Below, piece after piece: positions 3,465 to 33,399 of a stretch of 64,000 bases of DNA. The translations under genes were made by a program, and so were the position numbers. How positions within the stretch are numbered: position 1 is the first letter of the stretch; the number at the start of each line of letters is the position of its first letter. The stretch comes from Darksidea phi (taxonomy: Eukaryota > Ascomycota > Dothideomycetes > Pleosporales > Lentitheciaceae), in contig JASJFT010000208.1 in NCBI GenBank assembly GCA_030770425.1, forward strand, positions 1 to 64,000, written 5' to 3'. The notes beneath the pieces were generated by a model. It worked only from the letters and a program-made list of their open reading frames with translations. It did not search any database and had not been told where the DNA came from.

Positions 3465-3736
3465 TATACCTCTTATAGGGTAGAAGATAATAGAATACTA
3501 CTTTAAAGAGTATATCCTTTAAACCTTCTATAGACTTTAGGCTCGGTTTATTAACTTAGGTTTACTTAGGTATCCTATTAATAAGAATTAGAAAGAATAT
3601 TATACCTCTTATAGGGTAGAAGATAATAGAATACTATCTTAAAGAGTAAATCTTTAAATCTTCTATAAGCTTTAGACTCGATTTATTAACTTAGGTTCGC
3701 TTAGATATCCTATTAATAAGGGTCGAGAAGGGTATA
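3465..3736. repeat. 136-bp direct repeat, two units
   Basis: Units start at 3465 and 3601 with TATACCTCTTATAGGGTAGAAG-like sequence and share the block ending TATCCTATTAATAAG. They lie next to the 111-bp array. Confidence 0.8.
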
Positions 3737-3749
3737 GGCTTAGTTTATA

Positions 3750-5479: not shown

Positions 5480-5885
5480 AATAAGAATATCTTATTTATA
5501 AGTATACTATTATCTCTATACTACGTACTATTAGCTATAGTATAGAATAAAGTTTTTAAATAGAGTTTCTTACTATAATTATTATTACTAGTAATAATCT
5601 ACTAGAATACCTTTATAGAGAATATATTATTAGCTATAATATAGAATAAAGTTATTAAATAGAGCTCCTTATTATAATTATTATTACTAGTAATAATCTA
5701 TTAGGATACCTCTATAGAGAATATACTATTAGCTATAGTATAAAATAAAGTTATTAGATAAGGCTTCTTACTATAATTATTATTACTAGTAATAATCTAC
5801 TAGAATACCTCTATAGAGAATATACTATTAGCTATAGTATAGAATAAAGTTATTAGATAGAACTTCTTACTATAATTATTTAGAA
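5480..5885 (-). repeat. 99-bp tandem array (33-residue repeats), copy 1
   Basis: The motif CTTACTATAATTATTATTAC recurs near 5569, 5668, 5767 and 5866, a constant 99-bp period. Read on the minus strand the unit is a 33-codon repeat with the core KKLYLITLFYTIANS. A diverged counterpart is at 30985-31345. Confidence 0.88.
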
Positions 5886-6925
5886 TATAACTATACTCGT
5901 ATAGAGTACTACTAGAACCTATAGTACTATACTATCGACTAAAGTATAGAATTCTAATAATATTTACTATATCTACGTTTCTATTCTAATAGATAGAGTA
6001 AAAGAGCGTATTAAGAATATATTACTACTACCTATACGTATATCTTAGTCTAGATATATAATAGCTTTATCGAGAAGTCTATAAATAGGTACCTTTAGTA
6101 TAGTATAGTTAGTACGCGAGTTAATTAGTCGGATATTAAAGAATATAAGGGATATAATCTATTAAGTAAATAGATAGTAATTACTATATAAAGCTAATAC
6201 CTATAAAAGTACGTCGTATTATTATAGATTCTTACCTAGTTATAGCCTTTAACGTATTAGCCCTAAGCTAAATAACTATAGCTTCTTCTACCTCTTTAGT
6301 CTTTTCTTTTTATATATTTTCTTTCTATATAGTCTTATTAACTTCTATACTCTATATAGACCCTTACTTCTAGTTATTAATACTTTAAGCTCGATAAAGG
6401 ATAATTACGAGTACTAAAGTTATTACTAAAGATATTAATATAGTTAAGATAAGTATAAAGCTAGCTTTTAAGACTACTTTCTTTATTATAATAGATAGGT
6501 AGAACGGGTAGAAGGAAACTAAGCGATAAATATAGTACGGATATAATAGTAGTAAGATAGATATAAAAATAGAGTATATATAGCTATATAATAAGAATTC
6601 TAAAGATATAAGTATAATAGTAATTAGTAAGACTATATACTAAAAAGAGATAATACTATTAATCTAAACGGTAGTAGAGGGTAAATAATAGAGTAGGGTA
6701 GAAGTATAACTAAAGTTCTTAGTATACTATCTTAATACTCTTAGCTCTTATAAAATACTATCTAAATAGGGCTTTCTTATAGTTTTAGATTAAAATAATT
6801 AAATTAACTAATATATTTACGATTTACTACTATATATATCGCTTATTATCTTTATAGAGCGAGGTATAAGCGTAGTATATATATTTAGGTCTACTAAAGT
6901 AGAATATTCCTATTAGTTCTATAGG

Positions 6926-7013
6926 AGGTTAGTATTATTACTATAATAGGTTAGTATTATTACTAGGATAGATTAGTAGTATTACTAGAATAGATTAGTA
7001 GTATTACTATTTT
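6926..7013. repeat. 22-bp x 4 tandem repeat
   Basis: Units of the type AGGTTAGTATTATTACTA begin at 6926, 6948, 6970 and 6992. The stretch from about 6450 to 8000 otherwise holds only this array and the 69-bp array; no recognisable gene was seen. Confidence 0.8.
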
Positions 7014-7589
7014 TAGCTAGATAATATTTAAATATCCTATAGCTAATTATTTTATACTACTACTACGCTATACCTAATTACGAAGACTATAGACTTCTTA
7101 GCTACTTCTCTAGCTATACCCTATTAAAATCTATTATAGTACGCGAATAACTAATAGAGTAACTAATATCTAGACTAATACTTTTTTTTATATAGGCGTT
7201 ACCCTTTCTACTAAGAATCCTCCTATTAAGTACTAATATCTTTAATCTAACCTAATAGCCCCTTCTACGCTTAATATAATAAAGCTCTACTAGCTTCCTA
7301 TAATCGATTTAAGAATAGTAGATAGAAGTACTAGTATTTATTATACTATCTAACTAGATAGAAGAGAGCTTAAACTAGCCGTAATAATAAACCTCCTATA
7401 TAGGGTAGTACCTTCTCTCCCCTATTAAAGTAGCTTAATCTTAGTCTACTTTCTTAACTTCTATTACTAATACTAGTATCTAGCTTAAGTATTCCGAGCG
7501 TATCCTTTATACTATAGACGGGCTCTACTACTTAGTTATTACTACTATCTTAATCGATCTTTTAAGTAAGTAATAATTCGTCTTCCTTT

Positions 7590-7830
7590 TAACTATTACG
7601 CTCTACTTAGTTCGATCTCCTATACGTCGTACTACTTTCTAATAATCTATTCTTCTCTTAGTCGTTATACTCTACTTAGTCTAATCTCCTACGCGTTATA
7701 TTACTTTCTAATAATCTATCTTCCTCTTAGTTATTATATTCTACTTAGTTAGATCTCTTATACGTTATATTACTTTCTAATAATCTATCTTCCTTTTAGT
7801 TATTATACTCTACTTAGTCTAATCTCTAGT
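7590..7830. repeat. 69-bp tandem array, about 3.5 units
   Basis: CTCTACTTAGT-type starts lie at 7601, 7670, 7739 and 7808, a constant 69-bp period, with the shared block TACTTTCTAATAATCTAT. The period is a multiple of three, so a coding origin (23 residues) is possible on either strand. Confidence 0.85.
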
Positions 7831-8299
7831 ATATTATACCGATTTTAGGTAATAGTATAGGTATTAGTTATAATATTAGTCCCGATAAATTTATTCTTAT
7901 TATTAATAACTTTAGGGAAGCTAAATCTTATATATATAACCTCTCTCCTATTCTACCCTAAATTAAATTCGATAAGAATAACTACCTAAATAACTAAGTA
8001 ATATTAGATTTAGATAAAGCTCTAATTAGTAAGTTTTATAAGGAGTTAGATAAAGAGTAGATATAAATATATACTATTTATAATTATTACTAGTTTTAAA
8101 TTAGGATATATAACTATAAATACCTAGTATATTATAATAATAGAGTTAAGTACTCTAATAACTCTAATTAGATTCTACTTTATAGGGCTATAAATAGTAT
8201 AGACCTTAGTCTATTACTAATTACTCTTCTACTTCTAACGAACGTAGAGAAGATATTAATAGCTTAAGTATATATCTTTATAGAAATTCGGTAGTATTA

Positions 8300-11200
8300 T
8301 AGTTTATAGTAAAAGTATAGGAGTTATATCTATTATTTTACTATAAATATTAGTTAGATATTTTATAAGCTTCCTCTTTTATCTTTTAAATTAGATATTA
8401 TTATCCTTAAGCTACCCTAATTAGACGACGATAATAGGGATATAATCGACTATTAGTTTAAGAAGAACTTTAAGGTATACTAATTAGCTATACTTTAGTA
8501 GCTATTCTTTTTAAAGTATAATTACCCTAGTTACTATAATATCGAAATTAATTATAATACTATTTAATAGCTTCCTATAGACGCGTTTATTAATAATTAG
8601 TTTATTAAAATTAAATATAATAATAGACTATACTTAGTACTAAGTACTAGGTCTAATATATAAGTAGACTATTCTAGTCTATTCTATACTTCTATAGGTA
8701 CCCTACTTATATAGACCGTATCTATTCTACTTAGAAACGTAGCTAATATCTTACCTAATACTAGTAGTACTTCTATAGTATTCTCTTCTCTATTAACTAA
8801 TTCTAGTAGACTATATATAAGTTAATCTATACTAAAGGAGTCTATTAATAATATAGAGTCTAACTATAGTAGTCTAGATCTTACTAGCTTAGATAACGAA
8901 GATATAGGGATAGATATATTAGTTATATCTAATCTCCTTCTAGATATAGGGAAATTTAAGACTCTTTACTAGTAAATATAAAGTCGAAGAGAAGCTATAT
9001 ATTTTACTATAGATTCTATCTACTAGATATCTATTATAGAGCTTAATAGTCGGAAGTCTCTTCTTAGTCTTATCTTTCTTACCTTCTATCCGACTAGTAC
9101 TACTAATTTTATACGGTCCTAGTAGTATATAATAAACTATTTTATATATATTTATTATATTATATACTATAAGAACGGGTAATTTATATACTACTCTTAG
9201 TTTCGATTTACTATATTTAATACCCTTTTATAGAGGTAGACTATAGCTAAGACTAGTTTCTTTATTAATTATATAATAGATACTAATTCTATTACTATAA
9301 AGGATATTAGGGCCGCGTTTAATAGCCCTAATAATAGTCTATAACTAATTAATTCTATTATTTATTACTCTACTATAATTTAGAGATCTCGTATATATTA
9401 GATATAAAAGGGTAAAAATCTTAAGGCTATAGTATATTCTATCTTAACTCTCTCTAGATTAGAGACTAATATTAAGACTAATACTAATTATATTATAGAT
9501 TCGCTAGCTATTCTTTCTATATCTCTTTATTATATACTCTACTATAGATTATTATTAGTATAATCTACTATAATTTATACCTTAGTTTAAAGAGTAGAAA
9601 ACTACTACTTCTATACGGCGTACGTAACTCGTTTAAGACTTTATCTAAAACTATTCTTATATTATATTATACTAGTTCTATTAATAATTCGAGCTATTTA
9701 AAAAAAAAATTATTAAGTTAAAGTTTAAGGTTATTAATTTATAGGATTAATATAAGTAGTAAGGACGTAGGAGTACTTATAATTATAGTCTCTATTTCTA
9801 TTATTATACTCTTAACCTAGACTATAAGCTAGGTAGCTAGAGTATAGAGTTTTTAAGGAACTAACTTACTTAGTATTAAAAATATTATATTAGTACTATC
9901 TACTCTAAACTAGATACTTAGAATATACTAGAAGATGGATTACTATTATCGTTACTATTTAAGTAGATAATATTTAACTTTAGAGAGCTAGCCTCTATTC
10001 TTACTCGCTATTATCTCTATTATTATTAGAATTTATATTATAAGAAGAAAAATAAGGTAATTAAATAAGAGGTTTATTACTTCGATATACTATAACTACT
10101 TAACTTAGGTCTATAATTCGAAAAGACTTTAGAAAAGATCTACCTTTATCTTCGACTTTATTAAAATTATTTCTAGTTTAATATATATAACTAGGTTATA
10201 GTCCTTAGCTAGTACGCGAATACGGATATCTAGTTCTATACTAGTATTATTAGAGTAATAGAGTATATAGAGGTTTATACTATAAAGAAAGAAATATTAA
10301 CTCTATTATATAAAGAGATAGTAGTCTAAATTCTTCTTTATTTAAATAATAAAAATATACTCTTCTCTTTTACTTCTAAGCTCCTAAATAGAACTACTAG
10401 TTAGTAGGATTATAGTACCTAGAAAGTCTATTATATTCTCTTTAACTTACCCCTAGTTTACTACTTTTAAGTAATAGTTAATATTAATTATTACTCTAAG
10501 ATAGAGTATCTAATTACTTTCGTCTTTTAAAATTAGTAGTAAGAGATAGCTAATACTCCCGAAGATAATAGCGACGACTAAGTTTCTTTTTAATAAGACT
10601 AGTTACTCTTTACTAAATATAAAGAGTAACTAGCTATACTTAAGAAGATTAATTATCTTAACTTTCTTCTTTATTATATCTACTATCTATCTTTTAAGTA
10701 CTAAGCTCGAGTAAAACTATATATCTTAAAGTACTATTCTCTCTATTCGTCTATAGTATATACTAAAGACTTTACTTATATTATACTAATACTTTATTAT
10801 CCTTTTTATTTAATTAAGAATATTAAGTATATTAATAGTAAGGATTTTATTATTTATATAGAAGTCTACTATAAGTATAAAGCTTTATATACGTATATTC
10901 CTAGTACTTATTATAGACCTATAGAATTAGAGACTAAAGAAGAGAATTCTAAGTAGAAAAATATAGATTTAGAGGATAACTCTTCTTTTAATAAACTAGT
11001 AGCGAGACATCTAGATTTATAAGGATTTATTATAAATAATAATAATATTAAAGACCGATCTATTAATTAAGTAAAAGACTAGAATAATTTTATTTATAAA
11101 GATATATACGGACTCAACCTATTATATTATTAGAAGAATTAGAAGTATCTCTATTCTATTAATTAGGCTATTCGGACTAATATCTTACCTAATATCCTCT

Positions 11201-12660
11201 AGCCTAAGTAGTAGCTATTATATAATATATTAGTAAATTATAATATAGCTTTTTAAAGGGATAGTTCTTCTTCTTAACTTCTTATTAACTTAGATAGTAT
11301 AGATAGTATTAGTAAGATATATATAATAGAGGTAACGTTAGCTATTCTAACGGAGACCGTAGAGACCCTTAGTAAGGGACCCCCTATTACTTATTATATA
11401 CTAACTAGTATAACGGCCTTTCTTATATTAGAGAGAATAATTAATTCTATATTCTAAATTCTAATCTAACTATAGGGTAGTAATCTCTCTCTATTAGTAC
11501 CCGCTACTCTTTAGTAGATCTAAGTATCGTTTAAGAATATCTAATATATTATTATTAATAAGAAATCTATAGTTAGTTTAAGTATTCTCTTCTAGATATA
11601 TATATAATATTATAAGATTTAACTAAAATAATAGTTATTTCCTTTTACTAGAGTAAATATTATATTAGCTAGAGACTTTTATTAACTCCCGCCGGTTATA
11701 TATAGACTATTATTTAATAACTCCTATACTCCGAATCTTATTAATACTAAGGGTCGAGCTCTTTATTTTAAATTTCGTTATATAATTATCTTAGACGTTA
11801 TTATATAGTAATAAGATAATATATAAATAACTTTTTAAGAAGCTCTTATATATATTTATATTAAAGAGCTAAAATAAGCTAACTAGATACTACTTATAAC
11901 TTAATATTATATAGTACTTTCTTCGGCCGAATAAGATTTCTTTAGTAGTACTATATAAATCTATACTAAGAGGTATAAGATTAACTAGATTAATTATTAT
12001 TATATATAGAATTTAGGCTAACTAATAGTTATAATAAGAATATTTTATAAGAACCTATAGGTAGCTATAGTACTCCTAGAAGACGGTAGTAACCTTTCTA
12101 GCGAGCTTTTCCTCTATATTAGTAGACGGGTAATACTTTTTAAAAATATCTAAATAGAGAGAGACTTAATAAATAATACTATTAGGACTATTATTAATAT
12201 TATTTAGGGTATAAACGTTAATAATTATAAGAATATAATATCTCTTATAATTCTAGTTATATTTAATAGGTATATAGGTTCTAGGCTTTATTTAATAGAT
12301 AATAGCTAGATTATAGTACTAGTCTTTACTATTAGTAAAGAGTTTATACTAGACTAGATAATTTATACTTAGGTTTAGTTTCCTTTAGTATCTACTTAGA
12401 CTATTATAGTTTATAAGTCTTAGGACCTAAGTTTAGAAAAGGTAGTAGTCTATATTAATAGGGATTAGGATTATACTTCTAGGCTAATATATATTATACT
12501 TTTATAAGTAAAGATATTAGAGGGTATAATATTAGAGAATAGTTTTTCTTTTTAATATATAAAGTAGCCGAAAAGTAAGATATATACGTGTAGAAAGGTA
12601 AATAAGATTAAAAGAGATTAGTAATATATTTATATTAAGGATACTTTATTTTAGTTTATA
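8300..12660 (+). pseudogene. Helitron Rep/PIF1-like helicase
   Basis: The plus strand encodes a large Helitron replication protein. An N-terminal fungal Helitron helicase-like/Rep region is read at about 8385-9640 (motifs such as FRFTIFNTL). Then follow the SAQEVC-type block read as S.*KVYYILFNLPL (about 10420-10450), a degenerate Walker A (DGTGK-like, now DSISK, about 11300-11315), DFY*LPPV (11674-11700), and the terminal HKS*-like motif VYKS*DLSLEKVV (about 12410-12440). From 10081 to the end the frame is constant; the N-terminal part is one frame off, so a shift lies between about 9640 and 10080, possibly at the run of nine A near 9700. Helitrons move by rolling-circle replication and often capture host genes. 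The HUH motif and the 5' TC / 3' CTRR ends were not located. Confidence 0.85.
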
Positions 12661-13216
12661 AATATAAACTCTATTATTAACTAGACTAATATCTATACTA
12701 ATACCGTATCTATATACCTTTAAATATAATATTACTATACTCTAATAATTACTTATAGTCTAATATCTAGACTAATACTAAATTATACTCTATCTAGATT
12801 CTTATTATTTAGATATTACTATCTTTATCTACTTATACGTTCTACTTCTCTCTATCTAGAAGTATAATCTATAGCGTTATATCTTATAGGATATAATTAG
12901 TAGTATTATAAATTATAGAGAGAATTAACTTAGCTATTAGTAACTTATAATCCCCTATATAGAACTTTAAAAATATAGGAGTAAAAGTACCTTCGAAGGG
13001 CTCTAGTAGTTTAAGCGCCTCTTTATCTCTTACTAGCTTAATTTTATAGTTTAGAAACTTCCTATAATCTTAGTATAAGAAAATAAGAACTAAGATAGTA
13101 TACTCTATATACGAAAATAGTACCTAGAATAGTAAAAATAAAAGACCGGTCTTCTTATTAATAGTTATTCTCTTCTTATAACTATAATAAGTAGCTATCT
13201 CTTTAATAACTAATAG

Positions 13217-13267
13217 CTATAGTTATTAGTAAGACTAGATTAATACTAAGACTAATATTTTACTTAC
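13217..13267 (-). other. Introner-like intron (minus strand)
   Basis: Minus strand: donor GTAAGT at 13267, core ATATTAGTCTTAGTATTAAT, branch-like TTACTAATAAC, acceptor TATAG at 13217; 51 nt. It shares its core with the ten plus-strand introns at 15251-16831, though the surrounding exons are unrelated. Confidence 0.65.
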
Positions 13268-14095
13268 TTATAGTAGTTATAAGCGTACTACTAGTAGAGC
13301 TATAGTCTATTTTTAGAAATAAAACTATATTATATAGTAAGGAAACTATACTTTAAAGTAGACTTCGCGTTATAGTTACTATTAGTATTACTATACTAGT
13401 AGTATACCCTAAAAAAACTTACGTCCTTTAATATAAAATTACTAGCTATATTATAGAAAGGGGATTATAATATATTTTTATATATCTATAAGGTATTAGT
13501 ATTAGTATTAGTCTATTTAATATAATATATAGAACTTATAGTAAAAAGGGATTAACTAATTCTAGACTAGATACTATTTATATATACCTATTAGATATTA
13601 GTATAGATATTAGTCTATTAAGTAGATAAACTTATACTAAAAGTCCTAGATAATATATATAAGATATATACTATAAAGGTTCTAATCTTAAGAGTAATAA
13701 TTTTCTAGTATACTCTAATAATAGCTAATTACTAAAATCCTTATAGGAACTACTAATAGCTAAGTTATAAAATAATTAATATATCCTAATTAAACTAGTA
13801 GAAATACTAAACTATCTCTTTAGATAAATTATTATCTAAGTTACTAGAGGTATAGTTTTAGTTACTATTATCTTCGTCGACTAGTATAGAGGACGAGTTT
13901 AGAAGGGTTCTATTATCTCTATAGATATATAGCTCTTTTACTATACTATAAATAAATATAGATAGTATATACTTATTATTAAGCTAAAATATAATATCTT
14001 AGTAGTTATAATAGACTTTTTATATCTATATATTAACGTCTCTAGACTAGATATAAGCTATAACTTACTATATAAAATATAATCCCGAACTAAAT

Positions 14096-14143
14096 CTATA
14101 GATAGTTAATATAGACTAATACTAAGACTAATATCTTACTTAC
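14096..14143 (-). other. Introner-like intron (minus strand)
   Basis: Minus strand: donor GTAAGTAAG at 14143, core ATATTAGTCTTAGTATTAGTC, branch-like TATTAACTAT, acceptor CTATAG at 14096; 48 nt. Confidence 0.65.
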
Positions 14144-14592
14144 TACTATATAATAGTAATATTCTTAAACTATAGACGTAGTTAGATTTCGATTTTCTCT
14201 TTCTTAAATAGACTTAATATTCTATTAATAATATAGGTAATTAATAGTTAAAATTTCTTCTATATAGTTATATAGTACTTATTAGTTATATTCTTATCTT
14301 TAATTAACTAAAATTATTTATCTATAGCTTTATCGCGTACTTATAGGTTCTTCTTAGTATTCTTATTTAAAGAGTATTCGGTATTAGTCTTATACTTCTT
14401 TTAATCGACTATAGTAAAGGGTATTAATCTTAGTATTAGTCTAGTAGCTAATAATATATAGTCGTAAAAGGCTAATATTAGATATAGTAGTAGTATATAT
14501 TATTATTAAAGTTTAGAAATAAATATTTAGAATTATTTACCTATAGTTATATTTATACTAACTAGTAGTAAAGTCTATAGTAAGACTACTTA

Positions 14593-15102
14593 GTAATCGT
14601 AGTAAGTAGTAAATACTACTAATAAGTTTCTATAATTTTTAATAGCTACTATATCTCCGTCTATAGTACTATTATATTTAAATTTTTTACTAAATTATAA
14701 TTAAAATAAGATTTTACCTAAGGACCTAATACCGCGATTAATACTATAGTCTCCTTCTATAATTTAAAATACTAGCTAGTAGAATTTTAACTTTACTTTT
14801 AAGAACTTTAGTTCTTTTACTTCTACTACTAGCTAACGACTAGTTACGTAATCGTAGTAAGTAGTAAATACTATTAGTAAGTTTCTATAATTTTTAATAA
14901 CTACTATATTTCTATTAATAGTACCGTCGTATTTAAATTTTTTATTAAATTATAATTAAAATAAGATTTTATATAAGGGTCTAATACTACGACTAATACT
15001 ACGGCCTCCTTCTATAAATTAAAATACTAGCTAGTAGAATTTTAATTTTACTTTTAAAAGTTTCGGTTCTTTTACTTTACTTTTAACTTTTACTACTAGT
15101 CT
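14593..15102 (-). repeat. 255-bp tandem duplication, two units
   Basis: GTAATCGTAGTAAGTAGTAA recurs at 14593 and 14848 (255 bp, 85 codons) and both units read the same minus-strand frame. It is an in-frame internal duplication of the unidentified minus-strand gene. Confidence 0.85.
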
Positions 15103-15250
15103 ACTACTAGTTATATAATATTATACTATTTTACTCTATATATATATCTATCTAGTCCCTACTTCTATAAACCTTTTATTACTTTTCTACTAGATTATTA
15201 AGAACTTACTATTATAGTTATAGGTAAACTACTCTCTAAGACTATTAAGA

Positions 15251-16831
15251 GTAAGGTATTAATCTTAGTATTAGTCGTTTACTAACTTTTTATAGTAAGA
15301 ATAATATTAGTAAGCTCTAAGCTACCTAAGCTTTAACTATATATAAATAATCCCTTTACTAATAGCTAGAACCGCGGCGTAGACTTCTCTAATCTACTAC
15401 TATCTACTAGAGTAGACCCCTCTAACCTACTACTATCTACTAGAGTAGATATTATTAACCTACTTCTACCTATTATAGCTAAGTATATAGGTATATATTA
15501 GCCTTAGTATTAGTCTCTCTATTAATTTTAGTAGCGGTATATAGTACGTAGGCTACCGATAGTAATATTCCTATTCCTATCTTACTTAGCGAATAATCTA
15601 GTCCTATTAAACTAAGTAAATAATCTAGTCCTATTAAACTAAGTAAATAATCTAGTCCTACTAAATAAGCGAGGACCGCTTCTAATAACTAGGACGGTTA
15701 AATATATAATATTAGTAGACGATTATCTAGTATTATACCTTCTATAATAGCTAGATAGACTACGAGTAAGGTATTAGTCTTAGTATTAGTCCTTTATTAA
15801 CTTTAGAAGGGGATAGTACTTATTCTAATAATAGTAGATAACTAAGCGAATAATCTAGTTCTAATAAAGTAGCGAGGTCTACTTATACTAGTTAAGGTCT
15901 TAGTACTTATAAGGGTAATAGATAATATTCTAGTCTTCTATCTTAGTAGACTATAAGTAAAGTATTAGTCTTTATATTAGTTCTTTACTAACTTTAGTAG
16001 GGGACGGTACTCGTTTTAATAATAGTAGATAATTATCTATTACTAGACCTTTAATAACTATTAGGTAGACTTCGAGTAAGGTATTAATCTTAATATTAGT
16101 CCTTTATTAACTTTAGTAGGGAGGACTAATAACTAAGAAGAAGATAGTATAGCTCCTTTAGTTTAGGTATTTACGGGGCGTCCCGATCTAAATAACTAAT
16201 AATCTACTTCTATTATAACCTCTATAAAAGTTACGTATACTTTAAGTAAGGTATTAGTCTTAGTATTAGTTCTTTACTAACTTTAATAGGGGATACTACT
16301 TATTCTAATAATAGTAAATAATTATCTATTACCCGATCTTCTATAATAGCTATATAGACTATAAGTAAGGTATTAGTCTTAGTATTAGTCCTTTACTAAC
16401 TTTAGTAGGGAGGACTAATAACTAAGAAGAGGATAGTACTTATTCTAATAATAGTAGATAATTATCTCGTACGGGGTCTTTAATAATAATTAGACGTACT
16501 TTAGGTAAGATATTAGTCTTAGTATTAGTTCTTTACTAACTTTAATAAAGTAGGTCGAAGGTAAAGAATAGGATAGTATCTCTCTAAATCTTATTCTAGA
16601 GTCTAAACTTCTCGATATATCTAAGAGTAATTATAAATCTAATAGTATCTTTAAAATTACTAGGGTAAATATAATATAATAATCTACTATCTTTATAAGT
16701 AAGGTATTAGCCTTAGTATTAGTCCTTTACTAACTTTAATAGGGGCGAGTAGTAAGTAACTATATAAAATACTAGCTATCTCTATAAGTAAGGTATTAGT
16801 CTTAGTATTAGTCCTTTACTAACTTTAATAG
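15251..16831 (+). repeat. Array of about ten introner-like introns in the H3-like gene
   Basis: GTAAGGTATTAGTCTTAG-type sequences start at 15251, 15491 (variant GTATAT), 15766, 15957, 16076, 16246, 16365, 16505, 16699 and 16788. Each is followed by the second core TATTAGTC, a TACTAAC or TTATTAAC branch site and a TTTAG/AATAG acceptor, 41-49 nt in all. Copies are near-identical over the core. The exon between the last two is 45 nt and both flanking sites are phase 1. Several exons between them are also related (GATAGTACTTATTCTAATAA block), so exon-plus-intron duplication contributed; the same introns in an unrelated gene on the other strand argue that the introns also moved on their own. Confidence 0.75.
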
Positions 16832-17086
16832 GGGCGAGTAGTAAGTAGCCGCGTAAAAGGTCTATTATTACTAATAAGTCTATTACTATAAAGTAGCTAT
16901 ATAATAAGCCGCTTAAGAAGCTATATAAGGGTATTAAGAAAGCTAGTAAAGCCTCTACTAGTAATAAGTAATCTAATAAAGATACTTAGTCTAAGTATAA
17001 AAAGTATAACTATACTTTTAATCGTATTAGAGCCTCTATTTTTTGTAGTATTAGTAATAAGTCCCGTTAAGGTTAACTACGTAGTA

Positions 17087-17139
17087 GTAAGTATTAGTTA
17101 CTTTTACTTCTTATCTATTAATACTAATTAAATATATAG
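17087..17139 (+). other. Spliceosomal intron 1 of the histone-fold region
   Basis: Donor GTAAGT (17087), branch site TACTAAT (about 17122), acceptor ATATAG (17139), 53 nt, phase 1. Removing it joins the basic tail to RAL*EI in frame. It lacks the full introner core. Confidence 0.8.
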
Positions 17140-17328
17140 CGAGGGCTCTTTAAGAAATTCGGTACTTTTAAAAGGCTACTAGATTTATTATTCTTTATAC
17201 GGCGCTTAGCTACCTTATATACGAGATTACTAGGGACGTAAAAGATAGTAATAATTTATAATTTTAGGCTAGGACTTTTAATATTCTTTATACTACTACT
17301 AAAGCCTATCTTATTACTATTTTAGAAG

Positions 17329-17379
17329 GTATAGTTATAATATAATATTAGTTCTAGTATTAAACTAACTTTCTTATAG
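17329..17379 (+). other. Spliceosomal intron 2 of the histone-fold region
   Basis: Donor GTATAG, branch site CTAAC (about 17366), acceptor TTATAG at 17379, 51 nt, phase 1. Its removal changes E..[insert]..IAIYAKR to a contiguous E-A-T-N-F-I-A-I-Y-A-K-R that aligns with H3 without a gap. Confidence 0.82.
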
Positions 17380-17899
17380 CTACGAATTTTATAGCTATTT
17401 ACGCTAAGCGTATAACTATTATATAGAAGGATATTTATTCTACTTTCTAAGTTATATCTACTCTTAGATAGTAGTTTAAGCCGGTTAATATATACTAGAA
17501 GGGAGTAATAAATAAGTAGATTTAGACGTTTAAGACTATAAGATACGGACTAGTTTAGCTATTAGTCTATATAGGTTGTATTTTATTCCTTAGGTATTAG
17601 TCTAGGTATTAGCTAACTAGGGCTATAGGCTATAGAATAGGCGTTTAGCGCTATATAATAGGTAATAGCTAGTAATCTAAAGCTTTTATTATAAAATACT
17701 TGCCTCGTAGCTTATATATTTATTATTAAACTTTAAATATTAGACTTATATCTAAATTAATTTCCTTTAATTTATAATTAACTCGCTCCGTATTCTAATT
17801 CTCGTTTACGAAAGATTAGGTAATTTTACTACTTATTCTATCTACTTAGATCTCCTCCTTATCTATTACTTTATTAGTAAGTTTTTTATTCTCCTTAAT

Positions 17900-19260
17900 T
17901 AACTTACTAGTCTATACCGTCTTTAGCTATAAGATAAAGATATCCTTTATTTTATTCTTACGTATAATTATTTCTTCTATAAAAGATAAGCTACGTACTA
18001 ATAAATTTACCTCTACTATTAATACTTCTTATCTAATATAATACTAGTAGTACGCGTTCTATACGATCTTAGTATTAATAGAGTATAGTTTTATTATCTC
18101 TAAGACGTACCCTCTAATTAAGTCGAGCGATTAATAGATAATCTTTAGACTAGCTACTATAAGCTAATAATAATTAGTATACCTATTCTTCTTCTTATTC
18201 TATACTTAATTCTACCGAGTAACCTTAGTATTATAGATTAATAAGTTAAATATAAAAGTAATTACTATAAGTCTAAACTTCCTTATAAAAGTCTATATTC
18301 TTATTAGTATTATAGGTAATAGTATTAATTCTATATAATATTTCTACTTATAGTATATACGATAGTCTTAATTATATATAAGTTTAAGATCTAGATATAC
18401 TTATTTAGATAGTAGAGCTATACGTCTCTTATAGTTAGATACTTTATTATTAATTAAGTTATATATATAAGTCTAGCTTTAGCTATATAATAATATATCT
18501 TCTCGGACCCTATATAGATATTATCTACGTACTACTAGATAAATAATTTCTAAATTAAAAGTAGATTACTAATAGTCTACTTTAATATATCGTTATCTAT
18601 ACCTAAGCTCTTATACTAGTATAATATAGGTCTTATAATTTCTAACTTATCTAGATTCTTTTTCTACTAAGTATAGATAGTATTATAAATATTAGAAAAG
18701 GTTAATAGAAGTTTATATTACTAGTAATTTAGCCTATTAATTATTTCTATAGTTAATATCTTAGGCTTTAGGCCCTTCTAACTATTAGCTTTCTATTTAA
18801 ATATTCGAGCTTAGTAGACTTATCTACAACTTATCTCTATAGTCTATTCGATCTAGTATAAACTAGATTTATATTTATTATAATACTTAATAATAAGTAA
18901 TTTCTTCTTAAGCTTCCCGTCTAGGAGGTTTAAAACTTTACCCTAGTAATCTACTAATATATAATCTCTTATAATAAAAAACTCCTTAAGAATAATAGTA
19001 AAGATATTAAGTAATTCTTTTATATCCTTATTATTCTTAAGTAACTATTTAATAGGTATATTCTAGTTTACCCCTCTTATACTAGTTTCGAACTTAGACT
19101 ATTTTTTAGTAAAGCCCTTCTTATTAATATTACTAAGTTTCTTAATAATAGGATTCTAGATATAGACCTTTCTATATCCTAGAATATATTTTATAGTAAA
19201 GATTATAATAGTATCGATATTATTTAATAGTACTAAGCTCGTAATTCCCGTAAATAAAGG
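17900..19260 (-). pseudogene. Unidentified ORF, about 450 codons
   Basis: I do not recognise the product. From 19260 down to about 18240 the minus strand reads one frame without any frameshift if TAA/TAG are passed, starting PLFTGITSLVLLNN and continuing through a Lys/Ile-rich central part (LDGKLKKKLLIIKYYNKYK region near 18920-18870). Below about 18240 the frame degenerates. It is convergent with the H3-like gene, 0.3 kb away, and is cut off 50 bp from the LTR at 19317. No intron or signal sequence was recognised. Confidence 0.55.
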
Positions 19261-19311
19261 TATTAGACTTAGATTAGATTAATACTTAAATAAGTCTATA
19301 ATCTATATATA

Positions 19312-19316
19312 TATAA
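19312..19316. repeat. Target-site duplication of inner chromovirus A, left
   Basis: TATAA, repeated at 26351-26355 directly after the 3' LTR. The 5-bp length fits Ty3/gypsy, although the sequence is of low complexity. Confidence 0.7.
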
Positions 19317-19766
19317 TATTACGAAGTAAATATATACTATAGAATAGTAGTAAGAAGAGCTATCTAAGATTAAACCTATTACTAGCTTTAATATAGAATA
19401 CGACGACTACGACTATAGTATAAACGATAATTAGTACGAATAGCTTTACTAGGAAGTTATATAATAGATCTATAGATCTATAGGGCTTAGCGAATATAGA
19501 TTTATAAAGTTATAGATCTATAAATTAGTAGATCTATAGGAATATAGAGCTATAGATCCTATAGATCTAGGAAAATTAAATTAATATATAATAACTATAA
19601 ATCTCCTAGATAGTTTTCTTTTATAGTTAATTTCGAATCTAGATTAATCCTTACCTATTAACGTAATTAAACTATTATCTATCTATTTCTACTCCTTCTT
19701 TCCTATCTTAAGTATAAATCCCTAAACGAGGTTAAATAACCTATTAGACCTAGACCCCGTTTAATA
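19317..19766 (+). repeat. 5' LTR of copy A
   Basis: 450 bp, starting TATTACGAAG (TG-start after RIP) and ending CGTTTAATA (CA-end after RIP). Contains AGATCTATAG repeats. The conserved CCTTAACTATCTAGTAGG that follows may be the primer-binding site; no tRNA was matched. Confidence 0.93.
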
Positions 19767-19814
19767 CCTTAACTATCTAGTAGGTAGAAATAGCTAACTA
19801 TAATAGTAGGAGAA

Positions 19815-22800
19815 GAAATCTAATAAAGCGAAGCGACGTAGCCGCTAACTTAGGCCGAACCCTCTAAGATAGGAAGCTACCGGGAATTTAATTTCCTAGA
19901 AGGTAGTATAACTATAGAAAACTTTAAAAGAGTTATTAAGAATTAGTATATATTTAAGAAAAGGGAAGACGTATTAGAAGCTTAGTTTATAAAGTTAACT
20001 ATTTAACTTTAGAGATATATAAGTAAACTATTAAAGCTTAGAGAACTAAAGAAGTTTAATAGAACGAGATTAAAACTTAGAGGATTCCTAACTAATATAG
20101 TAATCTACCTCGACCTTAATAGAATAAAACTACCTACTAAAAGTAATAAAGTATTATTTATAGTAGCTTAATTTATAGGGAAAGCTATTACTTAGTTTAA
20201 GATATATTTAAATAAATAACTATAACTACCTAAAGCTTAGTAAAGTAATAAAATAAAGGCTATCTTCTTAAGTTACGAGTACTTTAAGAATAAGTTATAT
20301 ATTACCTTTAGAGATATTAATTTAGAAAGACTAGTAGAGTAAAAAATTATATATCTTAAGTAGATAAAATCTACTATAATATATACGTCTAAGTTCGAAT
20401 AACTTACTATAAAGATTTAATAGGGAGAGGTAGCTCTTATATTATAATACTACGAAGGACTAAAAGACTATATCTATTATAAAATAATTTAGATAGAACG
20501 ACCCTAGATTATAAGAGGACTAATTAAATAAGCTATTAAGATTAATAATAACCTCTATCTCTAGAACTTAGAAAGAAAGGAAAAGATCGGATTCTACGAA
20601 AAGAAGAAAGAAGAAAAATATTATAGACTAGAGGTAATAGTCCTAGGGGCTAGTTTAGAACCTAAGAAAGAAAAATAGAACTCTAAGAAGTAAGAGCTCT
20701 ACGAAAAATAAGTATACTTTAAATATAAGAAGTAAGGATATCTAGTAAAAGATTATAGATTAGACCTAAGAAAAGAAAAACTCTAATATACCTAGTAGGA
20801 TAAGAAGGATAGAGTAGCTACGATATAAAAATATAATATTATATATTAAACGACTTATATATATAACTAGTATAAGACGTACTATAAAGCTAAGTTAAAT
20901 ACTAGCTATTAGCTATAGAAATAGTAGGTAGCTACGACTTAAAAGTCTTAGAGAAGAGTTTCGTTCTCGCTAGAAGTATAAGAAGAAGTACCTAAGAAAG
21001 ACTTATCTACGAAGTAGGAAGACTTTAATAATACCCTAAATACGCTATTATAAATAGTTAATAATAGTAATAAGTTCTTAGAACTAGAAGATAAAAATCT
21101 AATTATATTATATAAGAATACTAGATACCTATAGATAATTTAACTATCTAAGAAAAAAATAGAACTAGTACTAAAATTTAATACGACTTATACTTAAGCC
21201 TTATAGTTTATAAAGAAAACTACGATATCTATAATAGTATAAGAAATTTATAAGAAATAGTCTAGATTTTACCTAATATATCGACTATTTAAAGATTTTA
21301 AATAATAGGTTAAATAGAACTTTATTATTATAGATCTTATACCTAACTAAGAAATCTAGAAAGAAATATAGTATATTACGAAAATAGTTAATAAAGAATA
21401 ACTATAATATATAGTAATTAAATAATAGATTCCTATATAAATAACCTTTATAAAATATAATAATTAGAGATATAAGGTCGATTTAGAGGACGATCTATAA
21501 TACGAAATAAAATATCTAGTATACTTTAAGATTATATAGATCTTATATATATAAAGAGAATACTAACTCTATAAGAAAGTAAAATAAAAGAATAACTACT
21601 ACTTAATAAAAGACTATAATAAAAGGATTATCTAAGTAGTTATACTAAAAGTAGTATATAAATAGTAATAATTTAAGAATTAGTAACGAAAGGGATATAT
21701 TAGAATTATACTAGGACTACTTCTACTATTAAACTATATTCTAAGAAGACTATAGTATAAATACCTAGAGAATAAATATCTAAAGTATATCTAAACTAAG
21801 ATTAATATAAAATATTAGCTAAAGAAGATAAGAATCTAAGGGACTAGAGGATAGGATTATATTTACCTCTAAGGAACTTACTAAGGAAAAACGATTATCG
21901 CCTTAATTAATAATAAAGCTATATAGAACTTTATTAGTAAGAACTTCGTCTAATAAAAGAAGATTTCTTAATAAAAGAAATAATACCTTAGTATTATATA
22001 TACTATTAAAGGAGAACTCTTTAATAAATCTATAATATATAAAACTAGAGGTAAGCTTAGCTTATATAACTAGAAAAAGGAAAATAAAATACTCGATATT
22101 ATAGAGATATCGGAAGACTAAGATATAATCTTAAGAATACTATAGTTATAAGAAGCTAATCTATATATTTAATAGTTAAATCGATAAGTAATATTTCTAT
22201 AGAAAAGAGCTAATACGACCTAAGAAGATTATAATATTCTAGAATACTATAGAGAATAGAAAGAATTATTTTAAGAACTTAAAGAAAGTCTACTCTAGTA
22301 CTAGTCTTAGGACTATATAATCCTACTATAGGAAGGAAAAACTCTAGGATTTAGACTAATCTATAAGTTAACTAAGGAAGAAGAAAAGATTATAATAAAA
22401 TATCTTAAAGATAACCTTATAAAAAGGTATATCTAATACTCGAACTTATTTATAGGATACCTAGTTCTCTTTATACCTAAAAAGGGTACTATAGAACTAT
22501 AATTATATATTAATTATTAAATACTTAATAATATTATAATTAAGAACTAGTATCCCTTATCTCTAATATTAGAAATATAAGATCGATTAAGAAAAGCTAA
22601 ATAATTTATATAATTAGATATTTGAAACGTATACTACTAAATTAGAATTAAGAAAGGTAAAGAATAAAAAATAGCTTTTAGAACTAAAAAGAGATTATAT
22701 AAGTACTAAGTAATATCCTTTAGACTTACTAATATACCTACGATATTCTAAGAATAAATTAATAATATTTTATAAAATTATCTTAATTAGTTCGTAATAG

Positions 22801-25140
22801 TATATCTTAATAATATCCTAATCTATTCTAAAATAGAAAAGGAATATAAGGAATATATAAAGAAGGTTCTATAGGTACTTAAGAAAGTATAACTATATCT
22901 TTATCTACGAAAATATAAATTCTATATATAGAAAATAGAGTTTCTAAGATTTATTATTAGACTAGGAGAAATTAAAGTAGACCTATAACGAATCGAGAAA
23001 GTTAAAGAATAGCCTACGCCTAGAAACCTTAAAGAGTTATAGTCGTTCCTAGGATTCTATAACTTCTATTAAAAGTTAATACTATAATAGAGTATAATAA
23101 CGGTACCCCTTATATAGCTTACTAAAAAGGACTAGCCTTTCGAGTAGAAGAAGGAATACTAATAAGCTTTCGAAAAAATTAAAGAATAGTTTACTAAGAA
23201 ATCTATAATTAAGATATATAACTCTAAAGAACTATCGATTATTAAAATAGACGTATTAGACTATATAATAGAAGTAGTATTACTATAGAAAGATAATAAA
23301 AATAACCTTAGACTAGTATACTACTTCTTACGAAAGATATTATTAGTTAAACTTAACTATAATATCTATAATAAGGAGTTACTAGTAATTATCGAAGCTT
23401 TAAAGAAATAGAGATCTAATCTATAGGAATCTAAATACTCTATTATAATCTATATAGATTATAAGAATCTAATAGAATTCTTAATAAATAAACCCCTAAT
23501 TAGAAGATAGATATAATAGGTATAAACCCTTATAATCTATAATATTAGAATTATATATACTAAGGGATTAGAAAATAAATAAGTAGACGCGCTTAGTAGA
23601 AGACCTAACTACTAAGGAATAGAGAAATCTAGTATAGTAATCCTTAAACTATAGCTAGACGGAATAATTACTTATAACTACCTAAAGTTAGTAAGAATAC
23701 GAGAAATAATACTTAAACTAGAAGGAAATAAATAGACTTAATAGATCTATATAGCTACTATAGAAGCTACGAACGAATAAAACAAAATTTAAGAAGTAAT
23801 CTAAGAAAAAGATAGAATTATTTATATATTCTAAAAGGTCTATATACCTAAGATAATATAGAAAGAATTTATTAGATAATATTATAAGGTACTAGTATAT
23901 AGATACTAAGAAGTAGAAAAAACTTTTAAATAATTAATAAGAACGTACTATTTCCTATATATAAGATAGCTAGTTACCTAAATACTTTTAGAATATATAG
24001 ATTATTACTATAATAAGTACGCTAGATACGTACTTTATAGAATACTATAACTAATAAAAAATATAGAAGGATTATAGAAGATTATTACTATAGACTTTAT
24101 TACGTAATTACTACGTTCTAAGGAACTAATAATAGAAGTATCCTATAATACTATACTAGTAGTAGTAAATAAGTTTATAAAGTATACTTACTTTATCCTA
24201 TATATAGATAAAGAAAATATAATAGAATAACTTATCTATATCTTACTAAAATATATATTTAGTAAATATAGAATACTAGATAAAATTATCTTAAATAGAG
24301 ATGTTAAATTTATAGTAAAGTTTTAATAAATTCTTATAGCTAAACTAGAAACTAAATATAGTATATTAACCGCGTACTATCTATAGATAGACGAACTAAT
24401 AAAACGAATAAACTAAATAGTAGAATAATATCTTAGATATTATCTAAATTATTATTAGAATAATTAGGTTATACTTTTATCTATAGTATAATTTATATAT
24501 AATAATTTATAATATAGTATAACGAAGATAATACCTTTCTTTATAAACTATAGAATCGAACTAGAAATATATAAAGAACCTAGATAACTTTAGTCTTATA
24601 GCTAGAATAGAGAAGAAATAATAAAAATTATTTTATAAATATACTAATAGCTTAAGGAAGACGTAGAATTCCTTTAAAATAGAATAAGTAAGTACTATAA
24701 TAAGAAGTAAAAGGAAGTACCTACTTTTAAAGAGGAAGAAAAGATATAGTTACTATAAAAAAATATTAAAAGTAAGTAACCTAATAGTAAACTAGACTAT
24801 ACTAAGATCGGATTCTATAAGATTAAGAAATAAGTCTTACTTATAAACTACTAACTAAGACTACTTCTATAAATAAAAATCTATCCTATATTCTATATTA
24901 GCTTATTAGAAAAAGTATTATAGGATATTAAACTAGTAGTATATAAAGTAGATATATATAGAGAAAATAATAAAGAATAAAAAGTAGAAGAAATCCTAGA
25001 TAATAATATTAGAAATAGAAAAAACTATTACCTAATCTAATAGTAGGGAACGGACGAGAATAGAAAACTATAGGAATAAACCTAGAAATCTAAAGATAAT
25101 CTTAATTATCCTAAGAAGCTTACGGAGTACTAAAATCGTA
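19815..25140 (+). pseudogene. RIPped gag-pol polyprotein of copy A
   Basis: One read-through frame. Gag runs from about 19815 and has a zinc knuckle at 20712-20760 in which all Cys and the His have become Tyr. The protease site is read near 21900 (ALINNKA.*NFISK). The reverse transcriptase spans about 22430-23070 with YPLSLI, the QIRIKKGKE*KIAFRT block and the active-site box YLNNILIYSK, where both catalytic Asp codons (22809-22814) are now Asn. RNase H lies near 23240-23600, integrase near 23840-24750 (IDFIT at about 24085), and the chromodomain (EEILDNNIRNRKNYYLI) near 24975-25135. Stops correspond to Gln/Trp codons. Confidence 0.92.
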
Positions 25141-25900
25141 ATTCTAAAGGAAATCTAGAGATAAGATAAGTTCGCCTTATAATAAGTTAAGAAGACTAAT
25201 ACTACCCGTAATATAGTATAAGGTATTTAACGAACTAGAAAGAGTAATATTATCTACGACGTTACGAGCGATATCTAGAATAATTAGAGAGGTCTTTAGA
25301 TTCTCCTACTACCCTAGCTACTAGAGCTCCTCCTTCTTAGTATTAAGTTTAGCCTCGAGGGTATAAGACTATCTAGCTATCTTCTTATTAAGAAACTCTT
25401 TCTATTTCTTTAAATATTAAATTCTTACCTACGTATTAGATAACTCTTAACTAAACTTAGCTATACGATGAAGTAATTCCTTATAATATTCTTTAATCGC
25501 CTATAACTAAGCTTAAAGTTTCTCCTATAAATAGTTAACGAATCGCTCTAATATATATAAGTCTATATATATAAGTTATAGTTAAAAATAGATACTTAGC
25601 TATAGAAACTCTAGATAACTAATAAGAATTTCGTACGTTTACGCGAATATAAGCCTTATAGTATTTACTTTTATTAGAAGAAATAATATAGGGCGTTCCT
25701 AGCCTACTATACTAAGGATAAGGAAATATTTTAGAACTATTACGACTAATATAGTTAATAAGTATAAGATATTCTTTAGTTTTACGAGAAACTATAGAGG
25801 AAGAAGGGTATAACTTAAGAAGATCCCGAGCTAATACTAATATAGCTGAATACCGGATTTAGAACAACCTCTAAGTCGAAGGTTTAAAAAGAGAAGATAA
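25141..25900 (+). other. 3' region and polypurine tract of copy A
   Basis: This stretch between chromodomain and LTR has fragments of open frame (QGVPSL..GQGNILEL near 25690) but no recognised domain. It ends in the purine run AAAAAGAGAAGATAA at 25886-25900, the polypurine tract for plus-strand priming; copies B and C have the same run at this place. Confidence 0.7.
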
Positions 25901-26350
25901 TATTACGAACTAAATATATACTACGGGATAGTAGTAAGAAGAGCTACCTAAGATTAAATCTATTACTAGCTCTAATACGAAATACGACGACTACGACTAT
26001 AGTATAAATAATAATTAGTACGAACGGCTTTATTAGGAAGTTATATAATAGATTTATAAATCTATAGAGCTTAATAAATATAGATCTATAGAGCTATAGA
26101 TTTATAGATTAGTAAATCTATAAGAATATAGAGCTATAGATTCTATAGATCTAGGGAAACTAAATTAATATATAATAACTATAAATCTTCTAGATAGTTT
26201 TCTTCTATAGTTAATTTCGAATCTAGATTAATCCTTACCTATTAACGTAATTAAACTATTATCTACTCGTTTCTATTCCTTCTTTCCTATCTTAAGTATA
26301 AACCCCTAAACGAGGTTAAATAACCTATCGGACCCGGACCTCGTTTAATA
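25901..26350 (+). repeat. 3' LTR of copy A
   Basis: 450 bp, same ends as the 5' LTR. Differences from the 5' LTR are mostly C/T and A/G. Confidence 0.93.
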
Positions 26351-26355
26351 TATAA
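26351..26355. repeat. Target-site duplication of copy A, right
   Basis: TATAA, matching 19312-19316. Confidence 0.7.
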
Positions 26356-26369
26356 TAGTCTCTTCTAAC

Positions 26370-27850
26370 CCCTATAAGTATAGCTTATTAATTATAACCT
26401 AGTTTATATAGTATTAATTAATAACTATAAGTACTAAGTACTTCTTCTCTTTAATATCTATCTATTAGACTATACGTATTATCTAATTAGGTTACTTACT
26501 ATCTTACCCCTTTATTAATAGGTATATTTTTTCTTCCTTCTCTATTATTTTAAACGGAGCGCTATTTAACTTAAGCTTTAGTTTAATAATATTAATTAGT
26601 TAATTATTAAGATACTTCTAGTAGTCTACTCTATACTAGGCGATCTTCTTTATATTTCTAAGATAGTCTCTTATAAATTTAGTATAGTAAGCTTAAAGCT
26701 TAGACTAAGGGGATATATTCTCTAAAATAACTTAATAGACTTATAAGTACTAGGATATATTTATTATTATAATAATAAATTTTATACTTATTAGGCTCGG
26801 CTTTAAGATAGTTATATTACTATATACTATCTAGTCGCTATTATTAGTCTATTCGACGTCCTTTAAGATAAGTTCGTTAGGATAAGTATATACTAAACGA
26901 GCTTTTCTATTCTAGTTAGATATAGGAAGTATTTTAGCCTAGTCTTTCTTAGATAGAGAATAATAGATTCTATTTATATATCTACTATAAGTATATATAA
27001 TCTTTACCCTCTTTTACTTATAGAGTACGACGAGGTAAAGATACTATTTAATATTCGTATTTCTAAGTAATAGACTATTCTATATTATCTTTTTCTAATC
27101 TTACGCCTATATATAGAGGTCTTATAGTAATACTAAGATAAATAATACTCTAATTTATAGTAAGTATCCCTTAAATATACCTATTAGGTCGAGACTAGAT
27201 TATTAGTTTAGCTAAAGTTTATATCTTACTAGTTCTATATATAGTATAAGATTAAGGGTATAAGTATTTAAAACTTATATAGTCTTATTTAGACCTATTA
27301 TATTAGCTTATATATTTACCCTTTTAGGCCCGAATACTATTCTATACTAAATATTAATACTAACTATTTAGTAGGCTATTAATCTAAAGTCTAAGTTCTA
27401 CTCTAGCTTAGGTAGTACCTTAATATAGTAATTTACTAACTTAGATTACTCCTTTAGTCGCTCTAATAGAATACTAAATATATTTATAGCTAACTTCTAC
27501 TTAAGGTAATTAGTACGTATTACTTTAATATCTACTTCTAAATTATTAAGTTTAGCTAATATATTATTACTATTAATTATTATTCGATTAATTTGTATTA
27601 TACTTAATAGTATCGTTAACTTATAATCGTAGTATTACTTTATTAATATTATTCTCTTCCTTTATAAATACGTCCTCCTCTTCTTTAAGAGCTTCTACCT
27701 CTAGAGTATTATACTTAATTAGAATCTTCTCTTTTTTACTTAATAATTCTTCTAATAATAAGACTTTACTACTATATTAGTTATTATAGTTCTTTTTCTT
27801 ATATCCTAAGCTCTACGTAGTAAGTTAGTATAATAGTAAACTATTATTAT
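26370..27850 (-). pseudogene. Unidentified ORF with coiled-coil-like start
   Basis: I do not recognise the product. The minus strand reads a nearly continuous frame from about 27800 to 26400, beginning with a Lys/Glu-rich stretch (LEVEALKEEED near 27700), then NNLEVDIKVIRTNYLK, GPKRVN and VKIIYT.SRYINRIYYSLSKKD. Interruptions are TAA/TAG at likely Gln/Trp/Arg positions. It lies directly downstream of the second repeat-protein gene and could be its C-terminal part or a separate gene; it begins 20 bp from copy A. Confidence 0.5.
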
Positions 27851-28076
27851 CTTCTTAGGTAGGTAACTTTAAGCTATAGCTATTGGTATCTAGTAGGATA
27901 GTAGTAGCTAATATACTAGTATCTATATTTAGCTATCTAGTTATAGACTTCTTTTATAGGACTTAGATAGATAGAGGGTCTATACTCTCGATAACTTTTA
28001 TTAATTTTAGAAAAGAGGTCGCGCTAGTAATATTTATAGGTAGGAATAGAGGTAGAGTATCTATAGGATTAAAGTT

Positions 28077-33350: not shown

Positions 33351-33399
33351 AATTAAAATATTCTAGTAATTCTAACTCTTAGATAATAGTACGTATAAT

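What the first reader, a model, noticed from the sequence alone, without database searches (positions are those of the whole stretch)
15230..17560. A CenH3/CENP-A-like histone H3 gene as apparent cargo of a giant transposon
After removing two phase-1 introns with clear donor, branch and acceptor sites, the translation gives a basic tail, RAL*EIRYF*KAT, a loop 1 two residues longer than canonical H3, and TNFIAIYAKRITII*KDI, all in H3 order without gaps. It lies inside the 47.9-kb TIR element, far from any living gene. RIP acts on duplicated DNA, so this histone gene must have been present in several copies. A mobile centromere-type histone could influence where kinetochores or heterochromatin form, which is speculation.
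Basis: partly seen in the sequence, partly recalled or inferred. Interest (0 to 1): 0.92.

Follow-up and report, generated by a model that had tools for sequence, protein, structure and literature searches.

The report
RIP-killed histone H3-like gene in Helitrons
A fungal genome carries about two dozen mutation-riddled copies of a rolling-circle transposon that had its own unusual histone H3-like gene, as some hAT transposons of related fungi do; it does not look like a centromere histone and does not belong to the giant element around it.

Summary
After two phase-1 introns the stop-masked translation is a histone (PF00125, E 6.7e-10) with a loop 1 two residues longer than canonical H3. The interpretation changes in two ways. 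(1) The gene is not cargo of the 47.9-kb TIR element. It sits in a separate 10,975-bp element, window 6853-17827, nested inside. Three empty sites, no target duplication, asymmetric inverted repeats, a 3' ATTTT end, DUF6570 and a helicase-like region point to a non-canonical Helitron (Helitron2/FoHeli-like); a Rep domain was not found. (2) CenH3 is not favoured: in 18 of 18 readable copies, non-RIP differences to the resident H3 are fewer than to the resident CenH3, although loop length leans to CenH3. Twenty-two copies cover the main fold exon; those read are RIP-damaged. Of 150 predicted exon lengths in 20 copies, 149 are multiples of three although they vary, so the frame was kept while the tail changed. 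A single-copy chromosomal H3 variant (C422) shares both intron positions and the loop length. H3-like genes in fungal hAT transposons are published; a Helitron carrying one was not among the papers my searches listed. Function is unproven.

The parts
6853..17827 (+). Helitron2-like element, 10,975 bp, carrying the H3-like gene
   Evidence: Left and right ends shared by other copies with different flanks; three uninterrupted (empty) sites give exact borders and no target-site duplication
6853..6863 (+). 5' terminus and asymmetric terminal inverted repeat, TATAGAGCGAG here, TACGGAGCGAG in the C174 copy
17782..17792 (-). 3' subterminal partner of the inverted repeat (CTCGCTCCGTA on +), 35 nt before the 3' end
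17823..17827 (+). 3' end ATTTT; next base is A in the 21 right-end rows read (20 places besides the window)
8220..8561 (+). DUF6570 domain (stop-masked)
   Evidence: Pfam PF20209 E 9.1e-6, 26.6 bits, cut-off 24.3, on a 200-aa piece; on the whole frame only 20 bits, E 9.7e-4
11404..12573 (+). Helicase-like region (stop-masked), Pif1 type by my reading
   Evidence: phmmer against PDB: 8bns ('AAA ATPase') E 7.1e-9, two stretches; 5fhd (ATP-dependent DNA helicase) 1.2e-3; 7otj (PIF1) 0.063; no Pfam hit
15251..16831 (+). Array of nine near-identical 44-nt introns (starts 15251, 15766, 15957, 16076, 16246, 16365, 16505, 16699, 16788) and short repeated exons coding a long N-terminal tail
   Evidence: exon lengths multiples of 3 in 149 of 150 cases in 20 of 22 copies
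16832..17086 (+). Lys-rich tail exon of the H3-like gene
17087..17139 (+). Phase-1 intron GTAAGT..TACTAAT..TAG
17140..17328 (+). Exon with alpha-N, alpha-1, loop 1 and alpha-2 of the histone fold
17329..17379 (+). Phase-1 intron
17380..17508 (+). Exon with TNFIAIYAKRITIIxKDI and a divergent C-terminus (3' end of the gene not fixed)
1974..49827 (.). Surrounding 47,854-bp TIR element with TA target duplication (context, not the carrier)

Best explanation
The feature is a divergent histone H3-family gene that belongs to one family of non-canonical (Helitron2-like) rolling-circle transposons in a pleosporalean fungus. Shown: the gene, the element borders, its presence across the family, the RIP damage. 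Inferred: a Helitron captured an H3-variant gene beside its 3' end, where 3' end-bypass capture would place it. The variant was of the type still seen on contig C422, with the same two intron positions and the same loop length. The gene was then carried through many transpositions with its reading frame kept while its tail exons were duplicated and lost. RIP later damaged every copy read here. Most likely role, weakly supported: the element made its own H3-like protein, which would enter nucleosomes with a tail different from host H3 and so weaken silencing of the element's chromatin.
For: Histone fold. Borders, no target duplication, inverted repeat, 3' ATTTT; compare FoHeli1/2 and Chaetomium Helitrons in PMC5148889 (passages). 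DUF6570 and helicase-like region. H3 exons present on 17 of 19 places that have one match of about 1,950 nt or more to window 11500-13900. Frame: 149 of 150 exon lengths are multiples of 3, with 19 distinct in-frame lengths. C422 relative. Saturated RIP.
Against: No intact copy or expression was seen. No Rep (PF14214) signal in this family; helicase without a Pfam hit. Transversion-polymorphic sites are 6 of 173, 7 of 172 and 14 of 172 at codon positions 1, 2 and 3 in 19 copies, but only 3 of 46, 0 of 45 and 0 of 130 in the two introns and 3' flank, so no clear selection. Three of 22 copies have a one-base shift in the fold exon. The C422 gene is not closer than H3 in residue counts (29-33 against 26-30). 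The exon-length argument is weakened by shared ancestry and by repeat units that may be multiples of three themselves. No relative was found in the protein collection, where RIP-altered words limit the search.
Confidence: 0.6

Rival explanations
1. Passive passenger: a Helitron captured an H3-variant gene once and multiplied it; the gene never served the element, as concluded for hAT-borne H3 in Pseudocercospora.
For: Position between helicase region and 3' end fits 3' end-bypass capture (described in PMC5148889). A published passenger case exists (PMC6710886). Transversion counts show no clear selection and three copies have one-base shifts in the fold exon.
Against: Frame kept in 149 of 150 exon lengths while lengths vary; present on 17 of 19 places with a long match to 11500-13900; introns and a long tail kept, unlike the mostly truncated, intronless hAT copies of PMC6710886.
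Confidence: 0.3
2. Captured CenH3 that could affect centromeres.
For: Loop 1 (9 residues) is nearer to fungal CenH3 (9-11) than to H3 (7) and 4 of 18 copies score higher with a CenH3 profile; Cse4 is among the PDB hits. The H3 profile rests on only 3 sequences.
Against: 18 of 18 copies have fewer non-RIP differences to H3 than to CenH3; H3 states F and Y at two positions (the Y could also come from RIP of other codons, the F not from W); the resident CenH3 has its intron elsewhere.
Confidence: 0.07
3. The gene is a native part of the giant 47.9-kb TIR element.
For: It lies between that element's ends.
Against: Three places carry the flanking sequence uninterrupted, two between paired giant-element ends (C130, C231), and the H3 element occurs with other flanks elsewhere.
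Confidence: 0.02

Closest known systems
H3L gene of the hAT element of Pyrenophora tritici-repentis (Manning 2013, PMC3538342; section 20 part 1 of 2 read, plus passages)
   Same: H3-like gene multiplied by a DNA transposon; changed tail; described as neither H3 nor CenH3
   Different: hAT with terminal inverted repeats, about 5.6 kb, mostly intact copies and ESTs; here a Helitron-like element, copies RIP-damaged. Sequence homology between the two H3-like proteins not tested
H3 captured by hAT in Pseudocercospora, Cercospora and Sphaerulina (Dhillon 2019, PMC6710886; parts 1-4 of 7 read)
   Same: RIP-killed H3-like copies in AT-rich blocks, intact host H3 kept
   Different: there mostly truncated, intronless copies in a 9.5-kb hAT with 20-bp TIR and 8-bp TSD; here introns, long tail, no TIR or TSD
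FoHeli / Helitron2 of Pezizomycotina (Chellapan 2016, PMC5148889; passages read)
   Same: asymmetric inverted repeat with the 3' partner some 35-50 bp before the end, 3' ATTTT, insertion before A (passage on other fungi), no target duplication
   Different: FoHeli1/2 begin TCAG, this one TACGG; no histone gene is mentioned in the passages read; a 3' hairpin is not supported here

Membership tests
Histone H3 family | Histone fold of H3 type in sequence | tested here: met
   PF00125 E 6.7e-10; best solved chains are H3
CenH3/CENP-A | Closer to CenH3 than to H3 | tested here: not met
   0 of 18 copies closer to resident CenH3 by non-RIP differences; profile scores undecided, 4 of 18 for CenH3
CenH3/CENP-A | Longer loop 1 | tested here: met
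   9 residues against 7 in H3; fungal CenH3s compared have 10 (12 of 15), 9 (1) or 11 (2), the resident one 10
CenH3/CENP-A | Localises to centromeres | not testable with these tools
   Needs ChIP; no intact copy seen
Helitron2 (FoHeli-like) | Insertion without target-site duplication | tested here: met
   Three empty sites, exact join
Helitron2 (FoHeli-like) | Asymmetric terminal inverted repeat | tested here: met
   11 bp at the 5' end, partner 35 nt before the 3' end; 9 of 11 match in the window, both differences RIP-type
Helitron2 (FoHeli-like) | 3' ATTTT and insertion TNAT^A | tested here: inconclusive
   3' ATTTT then A in 21 of 21 right-end rows; 5' flank TNAT in only 4 of 6 copies, not in the window; 5' end is not TCAG
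Helitron2 (FoHeli-like) | Rep (HUH) domain | tested here: inconclusive
   PF14214 gave one sub-threshold place, on C314; RIP damage may hide it
Helitron2 (FoHeli-like) | Pif1-type helicase | tested here: inconclusive
   PDB phmmer E 7.1e-9 to 8bns and weaker helicases; no Pfam PIF1 hit
Helitron2 (FoHeli-like) | Terminal hairpin | tested here: not met
   RIP-altered 3' end folds no better than shuffles, z 0.69. By the passages read, FoHeli3-5 lack a 3' hairpin and the Chaetomium repeats are not hairpins, so it is not required in all
hAT | TIR and 8-bp TSD | tested here: not met
   No terminal partner of the right end in the window; no duplication at the empty sites

The most novel reading that the evidence does not exclude
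H3-like histones are a recurrent transposon gene: unrelated fungal transposons (two hAT lineages in print, a Helitron here) took up H3 variants because a histone whose tail lacks the host's silencing lysines lets the element's chromatin escape heterochromatin. The chromosomal relative on C422 lacks the K4, K9 and K27 contexts but keeps those of K14, K18 and K23 by eye, as such a source would.
Probability: 0.2. Interest if true: 0.88.

Novelty: new variant of a known kind. Interest (0 to 1): 0.52.

Why it matters
Two published fungal hAT cases were read as gene captures. A third case, in a transposon with a different mechanism, where the gene is present across the family and kept in frame, makes chance less likely and suggests that H3 variants may be useful to transposons. 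That is testable in related unRIPed genomes. It also shows that nested elements can make a giant transposon appear to carry a gene that it does not own.

Tried and rejected
CenH3 identity: tested by profiles, residue states and RIP-aware counts; not favoured, though loop length leans to it. Cargo of the giant element: rejected by empty sites. hAT: no TIR partner for the right end in the window, no duplication. Pfam on four of the six read-through frames of the element gave only DUF6570, below its cut-off on the whole frame; the other two frames, both reverse, were not scanned because one search failed. PF14214 and PF05970 over the whole genome found no place in this element family. Protein collection searches with A1 and A2 found no relative; the third found the host's CenH3 93% identical to that of Lentithecium fluviatile, so the host is probably a pleosporalean near it, species unknown. 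3' hairpin: not supported. Selection by transversions: not informative. A long-query search of 1-19700 scored only 2 candidates. Papers: the titles listed by five searches (15 of 32 shown each; 67, 68 and 85, all shown) include no Helitron-borne histone; most subscription papers are not held.

Full report
What is there. The window is one stretch of a 51.35-Mb, 477-contig fungal genome. It is saturated with RIP: 13 CpA and 26 TpG dinucleotides in 64 kb. At 16832-17508 (+) three exons, separated by phase-1 introns of 53 and 51 nt with donor, branch and acceptor sites, give a stop-masked translation that hits PF00125 at E 6.7e-10. The C174 and C358 copies give 3.6e-13 and 4.5e-13. A profile of 7 of 22 copies finds solved H3 chains at 4.5e-14, with Cse4 at 3.1e-13 (60 of 172 matches shown). 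The histone is real.

Which element carries it. The 2.3-kb query has 63 matches in the genome. Twenty-two distinct places, window included, cover the main fold exon (17150-17330). Of these, 20 end at the same right end...GATTAGGTAATTTT|A, with different sequence beyond it; one further place (C173) shares the end but only part of the exon. The pattern of that end occurs 29 times in the genome, with 0 in the reversed control. The left end is shared by five other copies read, beginning TACGGAGCGAG or RIP-type variants of it (TATAGAGCGAG in the window). Three places (C367, C130, C231) carry the window's flanks up to 6852 and from 17828 joined without the insert...TCTT|ACTACTTA.... So the element is 6853-17827, 10,975 bp, inserted without target duplication.

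What kind of element. The 5' end repeats inverted at 17782-17792, 35 nt before the 3' end. The 3' end is ATTTT and the next base is A in 21 of 21 right-end rows; the 5' flank is TNAT in 4 of 6 copies, not in the window. PMC5148889 (passages) gives asymmetric inverted repeats, 3' ATTTT and insertion after TNAT for FoHeli1/2 and related Helitrons; their 5' TCAG start is not matched here. Stop-masked pieces hit DUF6570 (E 9.1e-6, above its cut-off on a 200-aa piece; below it on the whole frame) and helicases of the PDB (8bns E 7.1e-9; 5fhd 1.2e-3; PIF1 7otj 0.063). That DUF6570 accompanies Helitron helicases, and that 8bns is Pif1-like, is my recollection. A Rep domain was not detected, no Pfam helicase hit was seen and a 3' hairpin is not supported. 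I call it Helitron2-like. Seven of the 29 right ends share at most about the last 100-270 nt and not the H3 part within the roughly 2.2 kb fetched; C307 shares the end and the edge of the H3 gene before its contig stops. So the H3 gene marks one family among several. Within it, 17 of 19 places with one match of about 1,950 nt or more to window 11500-13900, which includes most of the helicase-like region, also hold H3 exons on the same contig; C57 and C144 do not in the scored matches.

The giant element. It is real. A 5.5-kb repeat is interrupted at 1973|49828 by 47,854 bp with matching ends and TA duplicated. Its end pattern occurs 31 times in the genome, control 0, including facing pairs about 20.8 kb (C130), 35 kb (C231), 39 kb (C227) and 1 kb apart (C137). 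C130 and C231 hold the empty Helitron site between their paired ends. The H3 gene is therefore part of a nested arrival, not cargo of the giant element.

The gene. Upstream of the fold lie nine near-identical 44-nt introns and short exons in one phase. In 20 of 22 copies (L033 and L035 left out), 149 of 150 predicted exon lengths are multiples of three, although lengths differ between copies (for example 147, 192 and 219; 75 and 96; 255, 267 and 279). The exception is 95 nt in L030. Some values rest on an intron finder that can miss an intron, several loci end before the array does, and copies share ancestry, so this is good but not independent evidence. Transversions are too few to show selection: 6 of 173, 7 of 172 and 14 of 172 sites at codon positions 1, 2 and 3, against 3 of 46, 0 of 45 and 0 of 130 in introns and 3' flank (19 copies). 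Three of 22 copies carry a one-base shift in the fold exon (L025, L030, L031) and L033 is truncated.

H3 or CenH3. Using 18 readable copies (L025, L030, L031 and L033 dropped), first and second codon positions, and setting aside C-to-T and G-to-A differences, the copies differ at 26-30 of 146 positions from the resident H3 and at 30-38 from the resident CenH3; H3 is closer in 18 of 18. H3 is also the slowest to change, so this is not proof. Profiles (H3 from 3 sequences, CenH3 from 15) separate the reference proteins by about 34 to 51 bits but leave the mobile copies undecided: 14 of 18 favour H3, 4 of 18 favour CenH3, mean +1.5 bits. F instead of the CenH3 W (15 of 15), and Y instead of F (14 of 15), are H3 states. 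Against this, loop 1 has 9 residues: H3 has 7, the resident CenH3 10, and the 15 CenH3s 10 (12), 9 (1) or 11 (2), all counted from REI to the residue before the one preceding RF or RW. The C-terminus after KDI matches neither. Manning and others say of Ptr H3L that it belongs to neither group and has tail insertions (PMC3538342).

A chromosomal relative. C422:12,223-12,773 (-) holds an H3 variant whose H3 part has no second DNA match in the genome search, with a PF00125 hit of 3.6e-17 for its middle exon. By eye it has introns at the same two places as the mobile gene, with phase-1 donors, and the same 9-residue loop. The resident H3 (C6) and CenH3 (C454) have introns elsewhere (by eye). Its tail, aligned by eye to H3, keeps the K14, K18 and K23 contexts and lacks those of K4, K9 and K27. 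Its exon 1 and exon 2 do not join in frame at the only good acceptor (by eye), so it may be a pseudogene or carry a sequence error. It lies next to a DDE_1 transposase remnant. Residue counts do not make it closer to the mobile gene than H3 is (29-33 against 26-30).

Mechanism. Shown: gene, element, presence across the family, RIP damage. Inferred: capture at the Helitron 3' side, then retention in frame. Guessed: the protein entered nucleosomes and changed the element's chromatin. The passive-passenger reading remains possible at about 0.3.

Novelty. H3 genes in fungal hAT transposons are published (PMC3538342, PMC6710886). The titles listed by five full-text searches (the first two showed 15 of 32) include no Helitron with a histone gene; only openly licensed papers are held.

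Noticed in passing
window 1974-49827: A 47,854-bp TIR element (TATCGGTAAAAAGTTCGC ends) with TA duplicated; 31 ends in the genome, one facing pair only 1 kb apart (C137), like a short non-autonomous form.
   Followed up: partly
L038 1724-2274 (-), G000:C422:12,223-12,773: H3 variant gene without K4, K9 and K27 contexts, same intron positions and loop length as the mobile H3, possible frame problem at its first intron, next to a DDE_1 transposase remnant.
   Followed up: partly
window 15251-16831: Nine introns of the H3-like gene are near-identical 44-mers, apparently spread by exon-intron tandem duplication; exon lengths differ between copies.
   Followed up: partly
L048-L053 and L055 (C131, C153, C182, C197, C220, C246, C314): Seven places share the Helitron 3' terminus but not the H3 part in the sequence fetched: other Helitron families, non-autonomous or interrupted copies.
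   Followed up: no
window 19717-25256, 37610-43149, 55516-61098: RIP-damaged 5.5-kb repeats in both orientations; a further copy is interrupted by the giant element.
   Followed up: no
window 14584-14827 and 14838-15081: A tandem 244-bp direct repeat upstream of the H3-like gene, found in many copies.
   Followed up: no
window 17561-17639: A 79-bp stretch is duplicated in tandem in most other copies but single in the window.
   Followed up: no
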